Shown here: positions 17,625 to 27,825 of the stretch, in pieces
Layout of the letters: each line of letters starts with the position of its first letter
Numbering within the stretch: the first letter of the stretch is position 1
From: Candidatus Thorarchaeota archaeon
GTDB lineage: Archaea; Asgardarchaeota; Thorarchaeia; Thorarchaeales; Thorarchaeaceae
Reading direction: 5' to 3'
Length of the DNA stretch: 27,825 nt
NCBI GenBank assembly: GCA_004524595.1
Contig: SDOA01000050.1
Coordinates: forward strand, 1-27,825
Program-made: the position numbers and the translations under genes
Notes under the pieces: model-generated
Databases searched by the model: none
Seen by the model: only the letters and a program-made list of their open reading frames with translations
Told to the model about the DNA's origin: nothing

Positions 17625-17720
17625 TTTGCATGATAACCAAATTATGATTATATGCTTGTTTTTCGGCTGGTTACATAATGAAATTCAGAATTTCAAGAGC
17701 TTTCTAAGAGGATGTTGGAT

Positions 17721-20700
17721 GTGAAATTCAATAAGGAAATTGCATTAACCATTATGCTATTCTTTATTGTACCAATTTTTCTTTCTGCTGATATTCATTC
17801 CAATGAAACTTCACAATCTTCCGATACCAACTTTCATTCAACTTATTATGAGGAAAACAGCAGATGTTTTGAACCTAAATCGAAGATATATCTGCCTGAA
17901 TCTTACTATTCCAGTACCGAAGAACCCTCACCTGAGTCGGTCATTAATACTGGTACATTAAACCCAACCATCGTTGAACAGGTTGGATACCAGAACATTG
18001 GTGATTTTGTCGCAAGAACTGATACCGGCATTAACCTTCTTCAGGAGTTTCCTATTGATGATGAAAATGGTTGGCAAGCAAGTATTGCAGAAATCGATAT
18101 CTGGAATCTTAATCGTCTTTACATACAGAATGGCACAGTCGATGAAGGCTACCCGGGAATTAATGTGAATCCCTCTGGAAATGTCACTTATCACCCATTG
18201 GGATGGGATGCATATAGTAATGATACTACGGCATATACAGATGATGCCCAGTTGGCAGGATACGATGTATCAAACGGTGGATATGTCATTGTGGAAAGTC
18301 AGGGTGGGAAGGTTGGTCAACAAGCCTTTGGTCATGCTGCAGGAACACGCATTGTCTGGTCACAATTGGTCTATAATAATCCATATACTGAAGATTTCAT
18401 CTTGAATTTTGATTACTTCTATCTAAGAGGCCCAATTGATGGCCTAACAGGTCTTCATGATATAACTGGTAATTGTAGTATCGTGATATTCATCAATGGT
18501 GCCAATGTATGGAATATGAGTCTTCTCCTTCTAACACAGAGAGGTACATGGCTGAACACTGGAGATATTCCTATCTCCGTTCCTGGGTTACCATCTGTAT
18601 TCCTCTTTGAACTTGGTCTGATAATTGATGAGTCTATGGTCTTAAACAAGGAATACGACTATGATGGTGATCCTCTACATCTACCCGATGGAATTGTTAA
18701 CGCTTATTCCATAACCGCATATATCGACGATATCATACTCACCGGAGTAATGTCCCCTGAGTTCGATCAACTGGAATTCCAGATGAATATCGGAGATTTT
18801 TCATCTCCAATTACTGGCTCGCTTGGTGTTGGTAATTCAAGCATTACTAATCCTGATTATTGGACCACTGGACCTGTTTCTCTGGTAATAAGTGCCAATA
18901 CAAGCGTTATCTTTGAGTATAATGCTCGATTATTCTGTCACCGCTTTCTGAATTCTAGCTGGACCAATGACATTCATGAAAAAGGAGTACATTACTCGAT
19001 TAGTTATGATGAAAGCGCAGAGCTTGATATTTTCACATACCTCGGTTTCATTGGAGTATACGATGAACTCCAATTACGAATTTACTGTCCTGTAGATTGG
19101 CAGAACTTCACAGTATATAACTCATTTTTGAATGATGTGACATCGAGTTGCTATATTGAAAGCGGTTATGTCTTGATTCCGACTATACTTCTGGGTGTTC
19201 TCGGGTGGTGGCAGATACATTGTCAATCGCCGAATTATGCAGGTCATGCTACTATTGAACGATATGATGATGTGTTACCTGGCTACATAGAGGAAACCGA
19301 GTTTCGGAGTGATGATAATGCACGTCTTTCTGTATACATAGAAAACAGTGGAACTGAGCCTCATCTATCTGATCCCGTGAACTTTACTTGGGTAATGCCT
19401 GATTCTTCAATTTGGCACGAATCATCCACAACTAGTAATCTTGTTGGCTCTGCTGATAGCTCCTCCATAACATTTGGACCAACAAATACCACTGCTGGTT
19501 ATTGGGGAATACTCTATCTATGGACAAATGGTACTGAGTTAGCATATAGTTGTGCACTATTTACCCTAAAACACGAAGCTACCCTAGAGCTTGTGTATTC
19601 TGATTTGGGAACAGTCGTCGGTCAACCTGTTACAGTCGTATTGAGATTCTATGATATAGAAAACGGACAATTTATTCTGAATGATGGGACTGAAATAATT
19701 GGTACATGGGCAGCAGGAAATGTCATTTTTGAACCAAATGTCGTTAAGAATTGGTGGCAAGCTGATTTTGATACTCTCCTCGTAGGAGCTGGAGATTTTG
19801 AGGTCTCGATTGTTTCTCTTGCACCTTATTTTGAAACATCACCACTTATTGTCACGATCACATCCCAATACCTTACTATTCTGGATACTCCGAATGGTCC
19901 TCTACAACCTCTTATCTATGGCCATGAGTATAGCTTCAATTTTGTGTACAAAATCGATTATGATGAATCGGGAGTTGATGATGCACTTGTTGAGGTTTTA
20001 GAAGAAGGATCTGACTGGGTCACTGTAACTAATACTGGAAATGGTCATTATAACGTTTCACTCATTCCATTAGGTATTGGAGATTATGGTATCCGCCTTC
20101 AGTTCTCAAAAGAGGGCTACGAGAACCAGACTCACTATTTATCCTTTCTCGTAAACAAAGTGCCAATAAAGGTGAATTTTCTTACACTTCTGAGTGGTCC
20201 TGAACTTGGACCTTTACTAATTGAGATTGAGGTCTTAGAGGTTGATACAAATCAGCCAGTAATCGGTGCCAATGTGACTCTTAATATCCTGTCAAAAGGT
20301 GGAGTACTATATGCAAGTGAAACGATGGTTGAAGAAGCTGATGGCATATATAGTACCACGATAATAATGCCCATAGCCGGGGGAGTCACCCATAGTGCTA
20401 TTATATTCGTTCAAAAGGATAATTATGAATTGACTCAGATCTTTAGTGATACGCTTGTCCCTACTGTTGATACCAATGCTCGGCTTGTCCAGGCAATCAT
20501 GAATTACTCCACACAAATCGCGTTTATGGTTGGTGTTGTTGGTATTGTTGCGGGTGGTCAAAAGTACTATTCCAGAAAACGATTGGCAAAACAAGCCAAA
20601 GCTCGTGTGATTAAGGCACGGTTTACTGATGCCAATAATCTACTTGGAATCATTGTTCTACACAAACTTAGTGGAGTCCCAATCTATTCAAAGATACTCA

Positions 20701-21275
20701 AGGGCGGTTTAGAAGAGGGAATGTTGTCTGCCTTCATCACAGCAATCATGCATTTCCGATCCGAGTTTGAGGTTATTGGTTCTACAGATGATTATAAGAT
20801 ACTCCCAATATCTGACATAGTACGAGCTGTTCCCACTCAAAATCTTGTCTGTGCATTCATTACAATCACCTCTGCATCTCTTGGACAGGAAACCCGGATG
20901 ATCAGCTTCACCCGCGCTATAGGGATGATGCTTGATGAAGCATTGGCACAAAGACCTACGAAAGTGGCTGATGCAAAAACTGTGAAGACATTAGAGTGGC
21001 TTTTTGATGATTTTGTCGATGGCGCTCTCCTCAGGGACTATCAGATTGGCGAGAAGCAGCTACCCAAGCACCTTCGATGTATCGAAGAGGTTATGAAGCT
21101 GGATAGTTCTGCGGAGACTTTCAAGTTGATTAATCTATTACGGTTACTAGAAAGTTGTGGCATTCATGAAGATGATGCCTATATCCTCATAATGGAGGCT
21201 TTGGAGTTGGAATACATTCTTCCAATCTATCACTATAATGAGGACTCTAGTGTTGATGAGTCCAGTAGCTCATGA
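17721..21275 (+). CDS. Giant single-pass surface protein with cytosolic longin/roadblock-like domain (paralogue 1)
   Basis: About 1184 aa. Order: signal peptide (about 1-25, KFNKEIALTIMLFFIVPIF); an N-terminal beta-rich ectodomain (about 60-640) with many N-x-S/T sequons and a DYDGD acidic loop near residue 310; two Ig-like repeats of about 100 aa (from about 718 and 817); one transmembrane helix (about 926-946) followed by KYYSRKR; then about 235 cytosolic residues. The cytosolic part opens with NNLLGIIVLHKLSGVPIYSK, a beta-hairpin as in longin/roadblock folds, then a helix (SAFITAIMHFRSEF), two more strands (ILPISDIV, LVCAFITIT), a helix, and a helical tail. Start GTG 17721 has GAGG 9 nt upstream; ATG 17712 overlaps that SD. 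A tandem paralogue follows 96 bp downstream. Longin/roadblock proteins often bind or regulate small GTPases; such a role here is inference. Confidence 0.75.
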   Translation: MKFNKEIALTIMLFFIVPIFLSADIHSNETSQSSDTNFHSTYYEENSRCFEPKSKIYLPESYYSSTEEPSPESVINTGTLNPTIVEQVGYQNIGDFVARTDTGINLLQEFPIDDENGWQASIAEIDIWNLNRLYIQNGTVDEGYPGINVNPSGNVTYHPLGWDAYSNDTTAYTDDAQLAGYDVSNGGYVIVESQGGKVGQQAFGHAAGTRIVWSQLVYNNPYTEDFILNFDYFYLRGPIDGLTGLHDITGNCSIVIFINGANVWNMSLLLLTQRGTWLNTGDIPISVPGLPSVFLFELGLIIDESMVLNKEYDYDGDPLHLPDGIVNAYSITAYIDDIILTGVMSPEFDQLEFQMNIGDFSSPITGSLGVGNSSITNPDYWTTGPVSLVISANTSVIFEYNARLFCHRFLNSSWTNDIHEKGVHYSISYDESAELDIFTYLGFIGVYDELQLRIYCPVDWQNFTVYNSFLNDVTSSCYIESGYVLIPTILLGVLGWWQIHCQSPNYAGHATIERYDDVLPGYIEETEFRSDDNARLSVYIENSGTEPHLSDPVNFTWVMPDSSIWHESSTTSNLVGSADSSSITFGPTNTTAGYWGILYLWTNGTELAYSCALFTLKHEATLELVYSDLGTVVGQPVTVVLRFYDIENGQFILNDGTEIIGTWAAGNVIFEPNVVKNWWQADFDTLLVGAGDFEVSIVSLAPYFETSPLIVTITSQYLTILDTPNGPLQPLIYGHEYSFNFVYKIDYDESGVDDALVEVLEEGSDWVTVTNTGNGHYNVSLIPLGIGDYGIRLQFSKEGYENQTHYLSFLVNKVPIKVNFLTLLSGPELGPLLIEIEVLEVDTNQPVIGANVTLNILSKGGVLYASETMVEEADGIYSTTIIMPIAGGVTHSAIIFVQKDNYELTQIFSDTLVPTVDTNARLVQAIMNYSTQIAFMVGVVGIVAGGQKYYSRKRLAKQAKARVIKARFTDANNLLGIIVLHKLSGVPIYSKILKGGLEEGMLSAFITAIMHFRSEFEVIGSTDDYKILPISDIVRAVPTQNLVCAFITITSASLGQETRMISFTRAIGMMLDEALAQRPTKVADAKTVKTLEWLFDDFVDGALLRDYQIGEKQLPKHLRCIEEVMKLDSSAETFKLINLLRLLESCGIHEDDAYILIMEALELEYILPIYHYNEDSSVDESSSS

Positions 21276-21319
21276 AATTCCAATTAATATAACACAAACG
21301 TAATTAGACGATTTACACA

Positions 21320-21363
21320 TTAAATTAAAAGTTGATTACCATCATCAAAGAGTGTTAATGAGG
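21320..21363 (+). promoter_or_regulatory. Possible promoter and SD of the second giant surface gene
   Basis: TTAAATTAAAAG (about 21320-21331) is TATA-like, about 45 nt before the ATG at 21372, and GAGG at 21360-21363 is the SD with an 8-nt spacer. This would let paralogue 2 be transcribed separately from paralogue 1. Confidence 0.35.
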
Positions 21364-21371
21364 AAATAGGC

Positions 21372-24300
21372 ATGCCATCAAATTACCAAACACTTCTCAT
21401 TATAGCAATATTAGTGAGTCCTATCATAATGATTCCAGATGTGATACGGGTCATGGATAGGAAGGGTTTCAGTGATACTGACTCTATTGATCCCTCTGGT
21501 TCTTTTACTGAAAAAGATACTATTCGTGAGGATATTCCTCCCGATGATGTGCCTTTGAATCCCTCCGATAGACAACAATTAGCATACGAATTCACTTCTG
21601 GTATAGCTGACCCTCTTATTATCGAAAGGCAGGGATATTATTCGACTGGTACCATAATTGCAAGAACGGATATAATGGAACACACTCACCAGAATCTACT
21701 CATTGATACCAGTAATAACTGGAAAGGAAGTATTGCAGAGGTAGAAGTTACGGACTTAACGACACTCTATGCTGTAAATGGAACATTCGATGAGGGTATA
21801 GTTGGGACTAATGAGAATCCTAGTACAACTAATCCTGCAAAGTACTTTCCATATGGTTGGGAAGCGACGAGTAACACCACCAATATTGAACAAACACAGA
21901 GGGCTGCTTATGATGCTACAAAATTCATAGTCGTTGAGAATGAGGGTAGGAAAGAAGGTAGTTCTGGTGTGAAATATACTCATTCAGCAGGTACAAGCAT
22001 TGTGTGGACTCAAACTATTGAGAACAAGCCACAGGTTGATAATTTCATTCTGAGTTTTAGCTATCTCTATCTTAGAGGTGTCCTTGGTTATGCGAATTTC
22101 ACTGGAGATTGTACTCTGAATGTATTCTTAGATGGAAACCGTGTTTATAATATTAGTTTACCAACATTGGCAAATCGAGGAACATGGTATGATACAGGTG
22201 AAAATAACATAACCATTTTCAATGCTCCAGATTCTTTTGAATTAATGATTGGGTTAGTGATTGATGAAACCTTAGCATTAAATGCTGAAGAAGATTACAA
22301 TGGCGATTCAATACCTGAAGGCTATTCAAATACTATTTACATTACTGCGTATATTGATAATCTAAAATTCATAAGTGCTACTTCACCTTCTTTCGAGTCA
22401 GTTGATCTTCAGTTCCATGCTGGTGGTGAATCTGAACCAATAGTTGGAAGCTCAGGCACTGGTGCAGCAGAAATAATCAATCCGACATATTGGGTGGAGT
22501 CTGAAGTTCCAATATCCCTTAGCGCCAATAAGACAGTTACTTTCATCTATGAATCCCGCCTTCTCTCACATAGATTCAGCAATAGTAGTTATACGACTGA
22601 TATTAGCAAGCCTGGTGTATCATTTGAGGTTGAGCATGGCGTAAGTGCAGAAGTTCAAGCTTTTTCATACCTTGGATCACTACTTGGATATGAGGAGAAT
22701 ACACTTTTCGTTTACCATCCACCTGATTGGGAGAATCAGACAATTCTTAACCCGTTTTTGAATGACATCTCATCACAATGTACCTTCTTCTCAAATTATT
22801 TCTCAATCCCAGAATCAGCTCTCGCAAACCTTGGCTGGTATGAGATTATTATGGAATCTCCAAACTACGCTCAAGATGTTGATGTACAGATTCTTGATTC
22901 TGGATGGGTCTCTGGAGTGATTTTCAGGCCAGGTAATGAAACACGTCCACTGATATCAATTCAAACTCAAGAAGAAATTCCTTCCACGCTAGATGATGTG
23001 GAGATTTCATGGTATGTTTCAAATGGGACCCTTTGGTATGATGAATCTGTCAGTGATGGAATTGATGGCATCATTCAAGGGACTTCAAAAATACTTGATG
23101 CATCTCAAGCTGGCGCATGGCAAATCGAGATATTTTGGTCCAATGGAACTGAGATAGCATTTGATATAGTCAGTTTTGATGTTTATCACACGGCTAATCT
23201 AGTACCTATTGATACTACAATTGAAACGGATAGTGGCGAGACAATTACTGGCAGAGTTCGGTATTTGGATACAGATACTGGTGAGTACTTGATGGATACT
23301 GCCACAATTGTTGGTAATTGGTCGACTAGTACCATTACTTTTGAATCAAATCCTGCTCGTAATTGGTGGGATGCAGATTTTGACACTTCAGCTCTTAATG
23401 AAGGGTTACACAAGGTTATCGTGAATGCATCAAAGATGTACTATGATTTTATTTCTACAGAATTTTATGTAATATCTACAAAAGTGACCAGATTATCATC
23501 GCCTAATTCGCCATGGTCTTCTACAGCTTGGGATTCATCTATTCTACTGGTCTTCAATTATGAACATTATGATTCTGATACTTCTTCTTGGAATCCGGTA
23601 CTCAATGAGTCAGATATAGTAACCACGACAAACTGGACGTCTGGTTATTGGTCAGTTTCTGAGGATATTACACCTGGTATATTCGTAATCGAACTTGATA
23701 CAAGTAGCAATCCTGCAGGTACCTATTTACTAAATGTCACATTTTCAAAACCGTACTATGAATCAAAAGTTATTTTGCTTACTTTGATTGTATCGCCTGC
23801 TGCTAGCTCTTTGATTATAATAGGTGAACCTTCTGCTCGAGTAGATCTTGGAGAAGATTATGATATCATATTGCATTTTGCTCATTCTGATGGAGATCCT
23901 GTTATTGGAGGTAATGTCGTCGTTGACAGTGTTTCTCCTCCAACAGGTCTGAGTTCCACATCAGTTGACCCTGTAGTTGGTCAACCCGGGAATCACTCAG
24001 TCACCTTAACGCCTAATTCTTCTGGAGTCTATGCCATTCGATTTGTTGCCACTGGAGAAAGTACTGAACCAGCAATTACGGTTTTCGTTCTCGTAGTCAA
24101 TGATGTTGAAACTTCTCTCCTTCTCTCACACAGTAATAGCGTTGAGATTGGCCTTACAGATTCTCACAATACTATCTTTAGATATGAATCCGTTAATGGA
24201 ACTGGAATTGAAGAAGCAGAAATAGAAATCATCTACTCCGGAAATCCTGGAATGCTCAACTGGGAATGGGAGGAGATTGGTTTCGGAAATTATAGTGCTG

Positions 24301-26435
24301 TGTTTAGTGCTTCAAAGTCAGGCACATATTTGGTTACAATTGCAGGATTCAAGCAATATTACCAGAGCGCTTCTAATTCCTTCTTCCTTGTGGTTCGTGA
24401 GATAACCACCAACTTCACCGTTCTGAACGGAACAGCTGGAGTCGTGAGTTATGGCGGCGAGTATCGCTTAGTTGTTAGCTATACAAATGGTAGTGGATAT
24501 GGCTTAGCCGGTGCAGAGATATCCGTTGAGAGCGTTGTTCCAGCAACCGGTCTTACTTATGACGCTCCAGTAGATGAAACAACTGGTATCTATTCAATCA
24601 TGCTACATCCGACTACTGCAAACACCTTTACAATTCTACTAAGAGCTTCTCTAGAAAACCACCAGACACTATTTGCATTATTCACTATTACAGCTACTGC
24701 AATTGCATCCAGTTTAACACTACTTAACGCAAGCACAAGTGTTTCTCTTGACCAGAGTTATACAGTCTATTTGCTTTATCAGAGTGAAACTTACATAGGT
24801 CTTGAAGGTGCTACACTATCTATTCAGAATCCCCCCTCAGGTGTATCATTCTCTGCTTTTGAAGATCTTACTGGAGGATTATATCGAATAACAATAACAC
24901 CTCTCGAAGTCGGAACTTATGATTGCATATTTAGAGCCGGTCTGACTGGATATCAGAGTGATACTGTAAGTTTCACTTTAGGGGCAACAAGAATACCCAC
25001 CTCTCTGCGTATAGCAAGTGGTCTCTCATCCGACTCGATGATGTACTCCAATCAATATGAACTACTCGTCTTCTATGAACGGACAGATTCTAATCAAAAC
25101 ATAACTTTGGCAGATATCAATCTTCAAACTTCTAGTACTGTTGGTTTCTTGTGGTCTGTTGAAGAAGTTGAAGATGGTTATCTGATTCTGATCGACACCT
25201 CTCGAACTGGGAGATGGACACTAACAGTCACGGCTCAAAAGACAAGCCATGCGGTGAGCTCGGTTCAATTCATTCTCGATGTCACTCCTATTCCAATTCA
25301 GATCGAGTTTCTCTCAAGTCTGTCTGTCATTGAAGGTACTAATTTCGATGTCACTGTTAAACTTACAATACAAGGCACCTCTACTCCCGTAACAGGAGCC
25401 GCTGTATCCTTCAGAATATCCACCACTGGTTCTGGAGAGTTTCGTACTATGGAAGAGACTGAAACTGCCGGTATTTACTCTGCGAGATATTCTATTCCAC
25501 TCTATCTTAGCACAAGTGAGTATCTTATAGAAGTGCGAATTGACAAGGATAACTATGAATTGACTGAAGGAACGTTCACGCGTCCTTTCTATAAGAATGA
25601 GAATCTCGCAGTAAGAATGACTCCGATAATATCAGGATCTAGTATTTCGCTGGCTCTAATTCTTGGTTTAGTCATTGGAGCACGTATGTATAATACACGT
25701 AAGAGAAGAAGGAACTTGGCAGCTTTACAGGTCAAGAAGCGATTTGATGATATATCAAACATTCTAGGGATTCTCATCCTTCACAAGAAGAGTGGTCTTC
25801 CAATCTATTCAAAGATACTCCGTGGAGGTTTCGAGGAAGCCATGGTCTCAGCATTCATCACTGCCATAACTCACTTCAGATCAGAATTCGGAATGGATGA
25901 GAAGCATTGGGACTTCAACGTCATTCCAATTTCTGATATCATCAGTGCAGTTCCGACACGTAGCTTCATTGTAGCATTCATTACTGTAAGATCTCCATCA
26001 AAATATCAGGAAACTGGAATGGAAGCATTTGGCCGAGCTGTAGGTGCAATGTTTGATGAACAATATGCTGAAGTACAATCCGAGATGATTGATGAGGAAC
26101 ACACCCACATTCTTGAAAACCTCTTCTATGACTTATTGGATGGTTTCCTCATCGAACACTACCGAACAAGTAGGGATGTCACCTTCCCCAAGGAGATGAA
26201 ATGCCTCGAATCAACTGCTCAACAGCTTGAAGGTAGTGAAGGATTCCGTCTGGAAGATCTTGCTAAAGGGATGGCTACATGTGGAATTGAGGAATCACAT
26301 GCTTACAAACTGGTCATGGATGCAATTGAAAATAACAAACTTGAAGTTGTCAATGGCCACATACCTGACAGCCGAATTTCGGGCCCTTTCATAGAACGTA
26401 GACCAGTTGAAGATGATGAGGAAGACGAATACTAA
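21372..26435 (+). CDS. Giant single-pass surface protein with cytosolic longin/roadblock-like domain (paralogue 2)
   Basis: 1687 aa, 500 longer than its neighbour. Order: signal sequence (about 7-25, TLLIIAILVSPIIMI); an N-terminal ectodomain matching paralogue 1 (shared features such as ARTD, SIAEVEV, YLRG, a DYNGD acidic loop near residue 306, PSYW/PTYW-like and NWWDADFD segments); about seven Ig-like repeats starting near residues 705, 812, 913, 1013, 1113, 1211 and 1309; a transmembrane helix (about 1419-1437); a basic stop-transfer RKRRR; and about 245 cytosolic residues. The cytosolic domain is closely similar to paralogue 1: LGILILHKKSGLPIYSKIL, VSAFITAITHFRSEF, VIPISDIISAVPT. It ends in a very acidic tail (EDDEEDEY). 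ATG 21372 with GAGG 8 nt upstream. Surface adhesin or receptor is inferred; no enzyme motif was seen. Confidence 0.78.
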   Translation: MPSNYQTLLIIAILVSPIIMIPDVIRVMDRKGFSDTDSIDPSGSFTEKDTIREDIPPDDVPLNPSDRQQLAYEFTSGIADPLIIERQGYYSTGTIIARTDIMEHTHQNLLIDTSNNWKGSIAEVEVTDLTTLYAVNGTFDEGIVGTNENPSTTNPAKYFPYGWEATSNTTNIEQTQRAAYDATKFIVVENEGRKEGSSGVKYTHSAGTSIVWTQTIENKPQVDNFILSFSYLYLRGVLGYANFTGDCTLNVFLDGNRVYNISLPTLANRGTWYDTGENNITIFNAPDSFELMIGLVIDETLALNAEEDYNGDSIPEGYSNTIYITAYIDNLKFISATSPSFESVDLQFHAGGESEPIVGSSGTGAAEIINPTYWVESEVPISLSANKTVTFIYESRLLSHRFSNSSYTTDISKPGVSFEVEHGVSAEVQAFSYLGSLLGYEENTLFVYHPPDWENQTILNPFLNDISSQCTFFSNYFSIPESALANLGWYEIIMESPNYAQDVDVQILDSGWVSGVIFRPGNETRPLISIQTQEEIPSTLDDVEISWYVSNGTLWYDESVSDGIDGIIQGTSKILDASQAGAWQIEIFWSNGTEIAFDIVSFDVYHTANLVPIDTTIETDSGETITGRVRYLDTDTGEYLMDTATIVGNWSTSTITFESNPARNWWDADFDTSALNEGLHKVIVNASKMYYDFISTEFYVISTKVTRLSSPNSPWSSTAWDSSILLVFNYEHYDSDTSSWNPVLNESDIVTTTNWTSGYWSVSEDITPGIFVIELDTSSNPAGTYLLNVTFSKPYYESKVILLTLIVSPAASSLIIIGEPSARVDLGEDYDIILHFAHSDGDPVIGGNVVVDSVSPPTGLSSTSVDPVVGQPGNHSVTLTPNSSGVYAIRFVATGESTEPAITVFVLVVNDVETSLLLSHSNSVEIGLTDSHNTIFRYESVNGTGIEEAEIEIIYSGNPGMLNWEWEEIGFGNYSAVFSASKSGTYLVTIAGFKQYYQSASNSFFLVVREITTNFTVLNGTAGVVSYGGEYRLVVSYTNGSGYGLAGAEISVESVVPATGLTYDAPVDETTGIYSIMLHPTTANTFTILLRASLENHQTLFALFTITATAIASSLTLLNASTSVSLDQSYTVYLLYQSETYIGLEGATLSIQNPPSGVSFSAFEDLTGGLYRITITPLEVGTYDCIFRAGLTGYQSDTVSFTLGATRIPTSLRIASGLSSDSMMYSNQYELLVFYERTDSNQNITLADINLQTSSTVGFLWSVEEVEDGYLILIDTSRTGRWTLTVTAQKTSHAVSSVQFILDVTPIPIQIEFLSSLSVIEGTNFDVTVKLTIQGTSTPVTGAAVSFRISTTGSGEFRTMEETETAGIYSARYSIPLYLSTSEYLIEVRIDKDNYELTEGTFTRPFYKNENLAVRMTPIISGSSISLALILGLVIGARMYNTRKRRRNLAALQVKKRFDDISNILGILILHKKSGLPIYSKILRGGFEEAMVSAFITAITHFRSEFGMDEKHWDFNVIPISDIISAVPTRSFIVAFITVRSPSKYQETGMEAFGRAVGAMFDEQYAEVQSEMIDEEHTHILENLFYDLLDGFLIEHYRTSRDVTFPKEMKCLESTAQQLEGSEGFRLEDLAKGMATCGIEESHAYKLVMDAIENNKLEVVNGHIPDSRISGPFIERRPVEDDEEDEY

Positions 26436-26527
26436 TTGGTAGTGATGACACAATAAAAGCATCGTCATCCTGTCATAGGTGTATTCTTATCATCGAGACT
26501 ACAATATGTTAAGTGGAGAATACAGTC

Positions 26528-27208
26528 ATGAGCCCTGGATTATTGAGTGATAAACGAGCTGTCATCGCTCTCATCATTGGGATTCCTCTTGCCATAATCG
26601 CACTGGTCTTCGTGAAACCTTATGATTACAACATTTCATTGGTTTTATTTGGTGCATCTCTCGTACTGATTGTCTTTGCATGTATCTTGGATACTGCAGA
26701 CGAGTTTGAATCGGTACCTAAGATAAAAACGAAACCTGATGAGAGTCCTGTATCGAAACCTAGTGAACCTCATGCTGAAGAATACACTCCCGCTGTTGTC
26801 AAACCTGCTGCTCATCCAAGCGAATTGCCAGTCGAAACCATTGAAGGAATTGGAGTTGTCTATGGTAAGCTCCTTCGCAATGCTGGTATTCCTACAGTCG
26901 CAGATATGTTAGGAGTAGATCCTGAACGAATAGCTGAAATCTGTGGTGTGAATATCGAGCAAGCTGAACGATGGGTTGCCATGAGTAGGTTTGCATGGCT
27001 TGACGAGATCTCTGAGGAAGATGCTGAAGCAATCGTCTTTGCAACTGGAATTACAGACTTGCAAGGACTTGCTGAAGCTAATCCTGAGGTTGTGTTAAAG
27101 AAGATTAAGGATGCTATCGCTAGTGGTGATGTTAGAGTTCCTGCAGGATATGAATTCACTCTTGAAAAGGTCAAGAGCTGGATTAATGCAGCAAAAAGTT
27201 TAGCGTGA
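26528..27208 (+). CDS. Membrane-anchored helix-hairpin-helix (DUF4332-like) protein
   Basis: 226 aa from ATG 26528, chosen because GGAG at 26515-26518 is 9 nt upstream; a GTG at 26513 contains part of that SD. Two transmembrane helices (about 11-29 and 36-56) are followed by a Pro/Glu/Lys-rich linker (about 60-103) and a globular helical domain (about 104-226). This begins VETIEGIGVVYGKLLRNAGI, a helix-hairpin-helix element, and continues with two further IxDLxGLAEANPE-like helical units, as in DUF4332 or the helix-hairpin-helix repeats of nucleic-acid or protein binders. It lies 92 bp after the giant surface pair on the same strand, with a hairpin terminator behind it. The charged side after the second helix suggests the domain is cytosolic. 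Function unknown. Confidence 0.7.
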   Translation: MSPGLLSDKRAVIALIIGIPLAIIALVFVKPYDYNISLVLFGASLVLIVFACILDTADEFESVPKIKTKPDESPVSKPSEPHAEEYTPAVVKPAAHPSELPVETIEGIGVVYGKLLRNAGIPTVADMLGVDPERIAEICGVNIEQAERWVAMSRFAWLDEISEEDAEAIVFATGITDLQGLAEANPEVVLKKIKDAIASGDVRVPAGYEFTLEKVKSWINAAKSLA

Positions 27209-27339: not shown

Positions 27340-27825
27340 TTACATATCAAGTCCTTCGGGATCTTTCCACACATCCTTATTGAGGTAGGCAACGAGTAAT
27401 GGTTTTGAGAGTCCTGGCCTTGTGATCCACATGAGAAATGGACGATTGATCACATATGGTTCACCTCTCCGTGGTGGTGCCTTTAGAATTCCTATTGCTA
27501 CCGCGCTCTTCACTCTGAATCCCTCATGGTTCATTTTGAGTTTTGTCTGTTGAAGCGCTTCTGTTATGACCATTCCTCCCACAGTGAGACCAATGAACCA
27601 TTCTAGTTTTCCCTCTTCATTGAGGTCGATCATCGGAAAGACAACGCCCTCGTACTCCGGTTCGATCTTCTTCATTTGTCGTGAAATGTTTTCCATATGA
27701 CTGATAAGTGAGAAACCAACAGGGGCATCATCAGCCATCATAAGATACACTCTATCACTAGCCCTTGTCTCAATCTCTATGATGATATTCGGATTGCCCT
27801 CCAATCGGTAAAAACCAAGGCCATA
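27340..27825 (-). CDS. Serpin-like protein, C-terminal part (5' end beyond the right edge)
   Basis: 161 codons before the stop; the frame stays open to the window edge (residues YGLGFYR precede the TTG at 27804), so the gene is truncated by the window. Late in the chain, MNHEGFRVKSAVAI is placed like the serpin hinge, and YVINRPFLMWITRPG with the following PLLVAYLNKDV resembles the conserved serpin C-terminus (DRPFLFFI...ILFMGRV). VVFPMIDLNEEGKLEWFIGL fits the strand before it. If a serpin, the hinge lacks the small-residue EEGTEAAAAT pattern needed for inhibition, so it could be non-inhibitory. Serpins occur in some archaea. It is a tentative assignment from the C-terminus only; the region before residue 60 shows nothing decisive. 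Confidence 0.4.
   Translation of the reverse strand, partial: YGLGFYRLEGNPNIIIEIETRASDRVYLMMADDAPVGFSLISHMENISRQMKKIEPEYEGVVFPMIDLNEEGKLEWFIGLTVGGMVITEALQQTKLKMNHEGFRVKSAVAIGILKAPPRRGEPYVINRPFLMWITRPGLSKPLLVAYLNKDVWKDPEGLDM

What the first reader, a model, noticed from the sequence alone, without database searches (positions are those of the whole stretch)
17721..26435. Tandem giant surface proteins whose only cytosolic part is a longin/roadblock-like domain: candidate Asgard receptor system
Both proteins have a signal sequence, a large glycosylatable beta-rich ectodomain, one transmembrane helix and a roughly 240-residue cytosolic domain beginning with a beta-hairpin and helix of longin/roadblock style. 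Longin and roadblock proteins are known regulators or partners of small GTPases and are expanded in Asgard genomes. A transmembrane protein joining an adhesin-like outside to such a domain inside would be a direct route from the cell surface to small-GTPase or cytoskeletal control. I know of no named family with this layout. The layout is seen; the GTPase link is inference.
Basis: partly seen in the sequence, partly recalled or inferred. Interest (0 to 1): 0.85.

Follow-up and report, generated by a model that had tools for sequence, protein, structure and literature searches.

The report
Asgard surface proteins with longin tails
Two neighbouring genes of an Asgard archaeon encode giant cell-surface proteins whose inner tail is predicted to fold like a longin domain, the kind of domain eukaryotes use with small GTPases; the same layout recurs across the Asgard phylum, which makes it a candidate link from the cell surface to the inside that we did not find described.

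The parts
17712..21275 (+). P1, giant type I surface protein, 1187 aa
   Evidence: ORF; full-length alignment A1 of P1 with 71 homologues
17712..17789 (+). P1 N-terminal hydrophobic signal sequence (aa 1-26, approximate)
   Evidence: hydropathy; no signal-peptide predictor was available
18111..18749 (+). P1 jelly-roll region (aa 134-346), CBM4-2-like fold
19224..20156 (+). P1 macroglobulin/Ig-like beta sandwiches (aa 505-815)
20493..20552 (+). P1 transmembrane helix (aa 928-947)
   Evidence: modest hydropathy peak 1.57; charge -1 before, +5 after; TM-like before the longin in 118 of 120 homologues at KD>=1.3, 111 at >=1.5
20580..20636 (+). P1 juxtamembrane helix joining TM to longin (aa 957-975)
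   Evidence: model; Asp conserved in 28 of 28 diverse members
20637..21029 (+). P1 longin-fold domain (aa 976-1106)
   Evidence: domain-only model pLDDT 85.9; VIA/Foldseek
21036..21224 (+). P1 C-terminal helical, winged-helix-like unit (aa 1109-1171)
   Evidence: order of secondary structure in model; fold not identified
21372..26435 (+). P2, giant type I surface protein, 1687 aa, paralogue of P1
   Evidence: ORF; blastp to P1; separate clade
22920..23132 (+). P2 MG2 domain (aa 517-587)
   Evidence: Pfam MG2 34.8 bits against cut-off 32.8
25617..25679 (+). P2 transmembrane helix (aa 1416-1436)
   Evidence: hydropathy peak 2.16; charge 0 before, +6 after
25758..26150 (+). P2 longin-fold domain (aa 1463-1593, by alignment to P1)
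   Evidence: alignment A2, blastp; not modelled by itself
26157..26348 (+). P2 C-terminal helical unit (by alignment to P1)

Best explanation
P1 and P2 are old tandem paralogues of an Asgard-wide class of single-pass surface glycoproteins. Outside, a jelly-roll (carbohydrate-module-like) head on a stalk of MG/Ig-like sandwiches binds something on a neighbouring cell, surface or polymer (inferred). One TM helix runs through a short basic juxtamembrane helix straight into a cytosolic longin domain (sequence and prediction), followed by a helical, possibly winged-helix-like unit. The longin acts as a membrane-fixed docking platform: it pairs with itself or with one of the soluble longin/roadblock proteins and recruits a cytosolic partner, most likely a Ras/Rab/Arf-like small GTPase, to the membrane patch where the outside part is engaged (inferred).
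For: Layout in the window. Longin fold: domain model pLDDT 85.9; by title or recall nearly all of the 50 Foldseek and 50 VIA rows are longin- or roadblock-bearing chains, a few chains of large complexes (8adl_S, 9o5a_C, 9y6s_6A, 8j07_k5) not being named by the answer. TM-like segment before the longin: 118/120 and 120/120 listed homologues at KD>=1.3, 111 and 120 at >=1.5; 20/20 distant giants; 16 of 30 loci of less similar genomes. The longin is the most conserved part: mean pair identity 0.69 against 0.49-0.62 for ectodomain parts, 0.49 for the C-terminal unit and 0.40 for the TM, as expected if it meets conserved partners inside. The same longin occurs under other outsides: the P1 ectodomain profile misses 19 of 140 distant members, among them the 1921-1945 aa class; some of the 19 are fragments. 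RB/longin dimers are described as small-GTPase platforms (PMC10933270, passages). One lineage has a Ras-family gene (Pfam Ras 7.1e-39) 56 bp downstream on the same strand in G104, with the same order in G100 and G101.
Against: No Pfam, NCBIfam or PDB sequence match supports longin; Foldseek gives no match at E<=0.001 (best 1.5e-3). In the full-length model the longin part (about aa 981-1090) has mean pLDDT of only 32-47 per ten residues, so the fold rests on the domain-only model. GTPases are not enriched beside giants: 2 of 90 immediate neighbours and 4 of 263 within three genes outside Thor, 0 of 44 and 0 of 141 in Thor, against roughly 2% of genes, taking 64-93 Ras-profile matches per genome and about one gene per kb; that profile also rings in 13 of 14 control genomes, so it counts other GTPases too, while my neighbour profile was built from a Ras-type seed and may miss Arf/Rag types. 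G100 (giant cut at a contig end) and G101 (locus not in the set) are not in the 90; the three genomes are related (giants 77-95% identical) and count as about one event. No GTPase domain was found in 28 + 9 cytosolic tails scanned. Dimerisation and binding are untested.
Confidence: 0.45

Rival explanations
1. Sorting or anchoring tail. The longin works as in adaptor sigma/zeta chains: it holds the surface protein to a cytosolic scaffold (adaptin-like, ESCRT-linked or cytoskeletal) that places it, for example on protrusions, with no signal passing inwards.
For: Structural matches include AP sigma, COPI zeta and SRX longins. Asgard longins are published together with Vps28-C, adaptin appendage, Ig-like, TPR and HTH/PCI domains (PMC10936438 section 6). 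Seven giants here carry cytosolic parts of about 470 residues whose sequence beyond the longin looks helical, with a weak, sub-threshold TPR match in two.
Against: Fold similarity cannot tell an adaptor from a GTPase platform. No ESCRT or adaptin gene turned up in the neighbourhoods, but only selected ORFs were scanned with Pfam.
Confidence: 0.3
2. Structural coat. The proteins are the irregular surface coat of Asgards, which lack a highly ordered S-layer; the longin only dimerises and spaces them.
For: Large, conserved, MG/Ig-like ectodomain; one Foldseek row is an in-situ S-layer protein (7ptp_A). L. ossiferum shows 'complex surface proteins' on a single membrane and no highly ordered S-layer (PMC9834061 passages).
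Against: The longin is more conserved than the ectodomain, odd for a mere spacer; several paralogues per genome with differing ectodomains.
Confidence: 0.17
3. Cleaved regulator. Intramembrane proteolysis frees a longin plus winged-helix piece that acts on DNA.
For: Winged-helix-like order of elements after the longin in the model.
Against: The fold of that unit is not identified; winged-helix-like units are also protein-binding; no protease gene was recognised among the neighbouring ORFs scanned.
Confidence: 0.05

Closest known systems
Longin domains of TRAPP subunits, adaptor sigma/zeta chains and longin SNAREs (Sec22b, Ykt6, VAMP7)
   Different: Sequence identity 4-19%. In longin SNAREs the longin is N-terminal and the TM C-terminal with almost nothing outside (recalled); here the order is reversed and over 900 residues lie outside
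Asgard longin and roadblock proteins, including Loki Roadblock-Longin (PDB 8yqg) and GTPase fusions (PMC10933270)
   Different: The passages that I saw describe no TM-anchored longin with an ectodomain; 'transmembrane' occurs 0 times in that text
Asgard multidomain longin proteins with Vps28-C, adaptin appendage, Ig-like, TPR and HTH/PCI domains (PMC10936438)
   Same: Longin combined with beta-sandwich and helical domains; a small-GTPase role is proposed there too (section 6)
   Different: That section does not describe a signal sequence, giant ectodomain and TM before the longin; its figure 6B and supplements could not be seen, so overlap with some giants is possible
Signal recognition particle receptor SRX-SRbeta
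   Different: There the GTPase SRbeta, not the longin protein, is membrane-inserted (recalled)
Alpha-2-macroglobulin/complement MG domains
   Same: MG2 match in P2 over the Pfam cut-off; fold match of the P1 stalk
   Different: No GCGEQ-type thioester motif in P1, P2; TM and longin present

Membership tests
Longin domain superfamily | beta1-beta2-alpha1-beta3-beta4-beta5-alpha2-alpha3 fold | tested here: met
Longin domain superfamily | Recognised by a curated sequence model | tested here: not met
   No longin family over cut-off in Pfam or NCBIfam; Fuz_longin_1 at E 0.16 in one of 28 members
Longin domain superfamily | Binds a small GTPase or SNARE/adaptor partner | not testable with these tools
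   Needs binding experiments
Roadblock/LC7 | N-terminal helix before beta1 and a single C-terminal helix, as described in PMC10933270 | tested here: inconclusive
Longin SNARE | Longin N-terminal to a SNARE motif and C-terminal TM (recalled) | tested here: not met
   The TM precedes the longin and a large part lies outside; a SNARE motif was not searched for
Alpha-2-macroglobulin/complement | MG domains | tested here: met
   P2 Pfam MG2 34.8 against 32.8 bits; P1 only by fold, its MG2 score of 12.7 is below the cut-off
Alpha-2-macroglobulin/complement | Thioester motif | tested here: not met
   No match in P1 and P2; GCGEQ in 0 of 120 listed homologues
Cell-surface receptor (works like) | Ectodomain, single TM, conserved cytosolic effector-binding domain | tested here: inconclusive
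   Layout met; ligand and effector unknown

The most novel reading that the evidence does not exclude
Asgard archaea possess a phylum-wide class of single-pass surface receptors, several per genome, that signal by placing longin platforms under the membrane to recruit or activate Rab/Ras/Arf-like GTPases: an outside-to-inside GTPase system older than eukaryotes, which would give the Asgard GTPase expansion an input from the cell surface.
Probability: 0.3. Interest if true: 0.95.

Novelty: new variant of a known kind. Interest (0 to 1): 0.77.

Why it matters
[quoted passage not shown] A conserved surface protein whose tail is a longin gives a concrete bait: its partners can be pulled out, and the protein can be located on cell body, protrusion or contact site in cultured Lokiarchaea. 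It is also a candidate for the 'complex surface proteins' seen in L. ossiferum tomograms (PMC9834061 passages); whether that strain encodes a homologue was not tested here.

Tried and rejected
Sequence-only identification of the cytosolic domain failed: Pfam, NCBIfam and PDB sequence profiles. The best rows (E 2.6e-4 to 4e-3) are designed helical bundles matched by one helix and are taken as compositional. A roadblock assignment was set aside because the best VIA rows are longins and cover the second C-terminal helix; it is not excluded. A general link of gene neighbourhood to GTPases was tested and not found. Context of Thor loci gave ligase, PTPS, folE2, MetRS, a P-type ATPase and other housekeeping or unrelated genes among the ORFs compared or scanned. 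Tails of about 470 residues show no GTPase or other clear Pfam domain. VIA on the full-length model reports mainly 505-815 and the jelly roll; the rest of the ectodomain is untested rather than of unknown fold. A control outside Asgards was not possible with the genome tools; it rests, where the listed rows that bear an organism name are Asgard or marine sediment metagenome, most rows bearing none.

Rows left out: A1 is P1 plus 71 of the 120 listed homologues, of 1129-1229 aa, not every one of that length; A2 is the two window tails, 7 of 8 loci and 15 of 17 proteins; A3 is the two window tails and 26 of the giants listed (L115, whose longin has no TM before it, and the giants with long tails were not used). 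The 140 distant giants are 120 listed proteins and 20 loci, partly the same proteins. Listings are cut by the tool.

Full report
What is there. The window carries two adjacent co-directional ORFs, P1 (17712-21275, 1187 aa) and P2 (21372-26435, 1687 aa). Each has an N-terminal hydrophobic stretch, a long sequon-rich part, a TM-like segment near the C-end and a C-terminal part with no sequons; the flank after the TM is strongly positive (+5, +6) and the one before is not (-1, 0), giving outside-N, inside-C topology. By hydropathy alone the P1 TM is modest (1.57) and some internal stretches score as high; its position, charge pattern and homologues carry the assignment. P1 and P2 align at 35% over 804 positions and 40% over 356. 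All 8 genome loci and most named rows are Candidatus Thorarchaeota, so the window is Thorarchaeal in all likelihood; no whole genome is held for it.

How widespread. One search (P1 cytosolic region) found 135 and (a distant giant as query) 226 proteins at E<=0.001, 120 of each listed; organism names shown are Thorarchaeota, Sifarchaeia, Lokiarchaeota, Promethearchaeota/-archaeia, Hodarchaeota, Hermodarchaeota and Heimdallarchaeota, or marine sediment metagenome; most rows have none. In the listed ones a TM-like segment lies just before the longin in 118 and 120 of 120 (KD>=1.3; 111 and 120 at 1.5), and an N-terminal hydrophobic stretch (>=1.5) shows in 88 and 85, some proteins being cut or having an uncertain start. 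Only proteins of 0.55-1.75 times the query length could be found, so this says nothing about short ones. A search with the domain alone gave 17 proteins of 123-394 aa, many on short contigs and so probably fragments. In 227 genomes of the phylum, profile A2 matches 154 at E<=0.001, and the broader A3 matches 221 at E<=1e-5, which includes soluble longins, so it is not a count of giants. All 20 distant matches that I fetched first are giants (1184-1945 aa, one cut) with TM and longin. In 35 less similar genomes, by my reading of the listed rows, 22 have a match that covers the TM side in an open frame of 550 aa or more; the list is cut. Of 30 loci fetched from them, 16 show a TM (>=1.5) before the longin and 14 do not. 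So the class is widespread in the phylum but not shown in every genome, and TM-free longins exist beside it.

Conservation and modularity. In A1 the longin is the most conserved part (mean pair identity 0.69; ectodomain parts 0.49-0.62; juxtamembrane helix 0.52; C-terminal unit 0.49; TM 0.40; signal and linker 0.17). The P1 ectodomain profile also finds 121 of 140 distant giants, mostly over aa of about 230-900 of P1, so the layout is probably ancestral to Thor and Loki groups; 19 are missed, including the 1921-1945 aa class and L047/L054, which carry the longin under another outside, and some short fragments. Columns kept in 90-100% of 28 diverse members are an Asp in the juxtamembrane helix, the Gly of the beta1-beta2 turn, Phe and Ala of the central helix and a Ser before the next helix. 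The central helix is the part that dimerises roadblock proteins (PMC10933270).

Tandem pair and context. lig-PTPS-folE2 followed by a giant is seen in 10 of the 20 Thor loci compared (L058-L063, L072, L073, L075, L077), and a P1-like gene followed by a P2-like gene, by best match, in L058-L061. A FastTree tree of 122 Thor longins separates a P1 clade of 88 (support 0.77) from a P2 clade of 34 (0.87), so the duplication is old, with moderate support. The neighbours look like housekeeping genes.

The GTPase link. For: in G104 a 190-aa Ras-family protein (Pfam Ras 7.1e-39) lies 56 bp after the giant, same strand; G100 (89 bp) and G101 (179 bp) show the same order. In G138 two Ras-like ORFs, one of them lacking its start, are convergent with a giant, and an actin gene (Pfam Actin 3.9e-50) lies about 3.2 kb on the other side. 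In five loci an Arf-like GTPase gene (Pfam Arf 1.6e-19 for the one scanned) overlapping a small gene lies about 1-3 kb away, convergent. Against: over the loci examined, GTPases are 2 of 90 immediate and 4 of 263 near neighbours outside Thor, and 0 of 44 and 0 of 141 in Thor (giants under 700 aa left out, so the cut G100 copy is not in it, nor G101, whose locus was not in the set), which is about the genomic background of some 2%. PMC10933270 notes that GTPase genes of MK-D1 do not generally lie in operons with roadblock, longin or TRAPPC3 genes (section 13), so context is a weak test either way.

Literature. Searches in the open library listed no paper that by title or abstract describes a TM surface protein with a cytosolic longin. 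Seen in part: PMC10933270 (passages and section 13), PMC10936438 (passages and section 6), PMC9834061, PMC4917890 and PMC11291895 (passages); the other papers only as listings. Figures and supplements were not available; most subscription papers are not covered, and published Asgard orthologue tables (asCOGs) could contain these proteins under a longin label.

Verdict. Layout: shown by sequence. Longin fold: well supported by prediction. Wide Asgard distribution: shown. Receptor: plausible. GTPase platform: inference from fold and phylum, with one lineage-specific gene pair for it and a negative general context test.

Noticed in passing
L078:6294-10879: Ras-family GTPase gene 56 bp downstream of a giant TM-longin gene, same strand; same order in L131 and L047.
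   Followed up: partly
L123:3341-13251: Two Ras-like ORFs (one lacking its start) convergent with a giant TM-longin gene, and an actin gene about 3.2 kb beyond the giant.
   Followed up: partly
L097, L104, L105, L114, L134: Recurring cluster: Arf-like GTPase gene overlapping a 184-190 aa gene with a 'GFDM(I/L)DGP'-like motif (longin-like by eye only), convergent with a giant TM-longin gene; four of the five also have a gene of about 420-450 aa next to the giant (RsmB/F methyltransferase in the one scanned).
   Followed up: partly
L079:3684-4763: Roadblock-Ras fusion protein (Pfam Robl_LC7 and Ras over cut-off), divergent from a giant TM-longin gene 1.2 kb away, one ORF between.
   Followed up: no
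L080:4788-5543: ORF of 251 aa, longin-like by eye only, ending 23 bp from a convergent giant TM-longin gene.
   Followed up: no
L079, L092, L110, L113, L119, L127, L128: Giants with about 470 residues from the TM to the C-end: longin, then a helical-looking extension with no Pfam domain over cut-off.
   Followed up: partly
L030, L031, L136, L137: Proteins of about 300 aa with an N-terminal longin-like stretch and no ectodomain, in tandem in L136 and L137; weak Fuz_longin_1 match (E 0.17 and 0.097) in the two scanned (L030, L031).
   Followed up: no
window 26513-27208: Small protein with an N-terminal hydrophobic stretch, helix-hairpin-helix and DUF4332 domains directly downstream of P2; a relative follows the pair in L059 and lies downstream in L062.
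   Followed up: no
window 27340-27825: Partial ORF with a sub-threshold Serpin match; a relative of 330 aa (L059:11927-12919) matches Serpin at 25.1 bits, just under the cut-off of 27.
   Followed up: no
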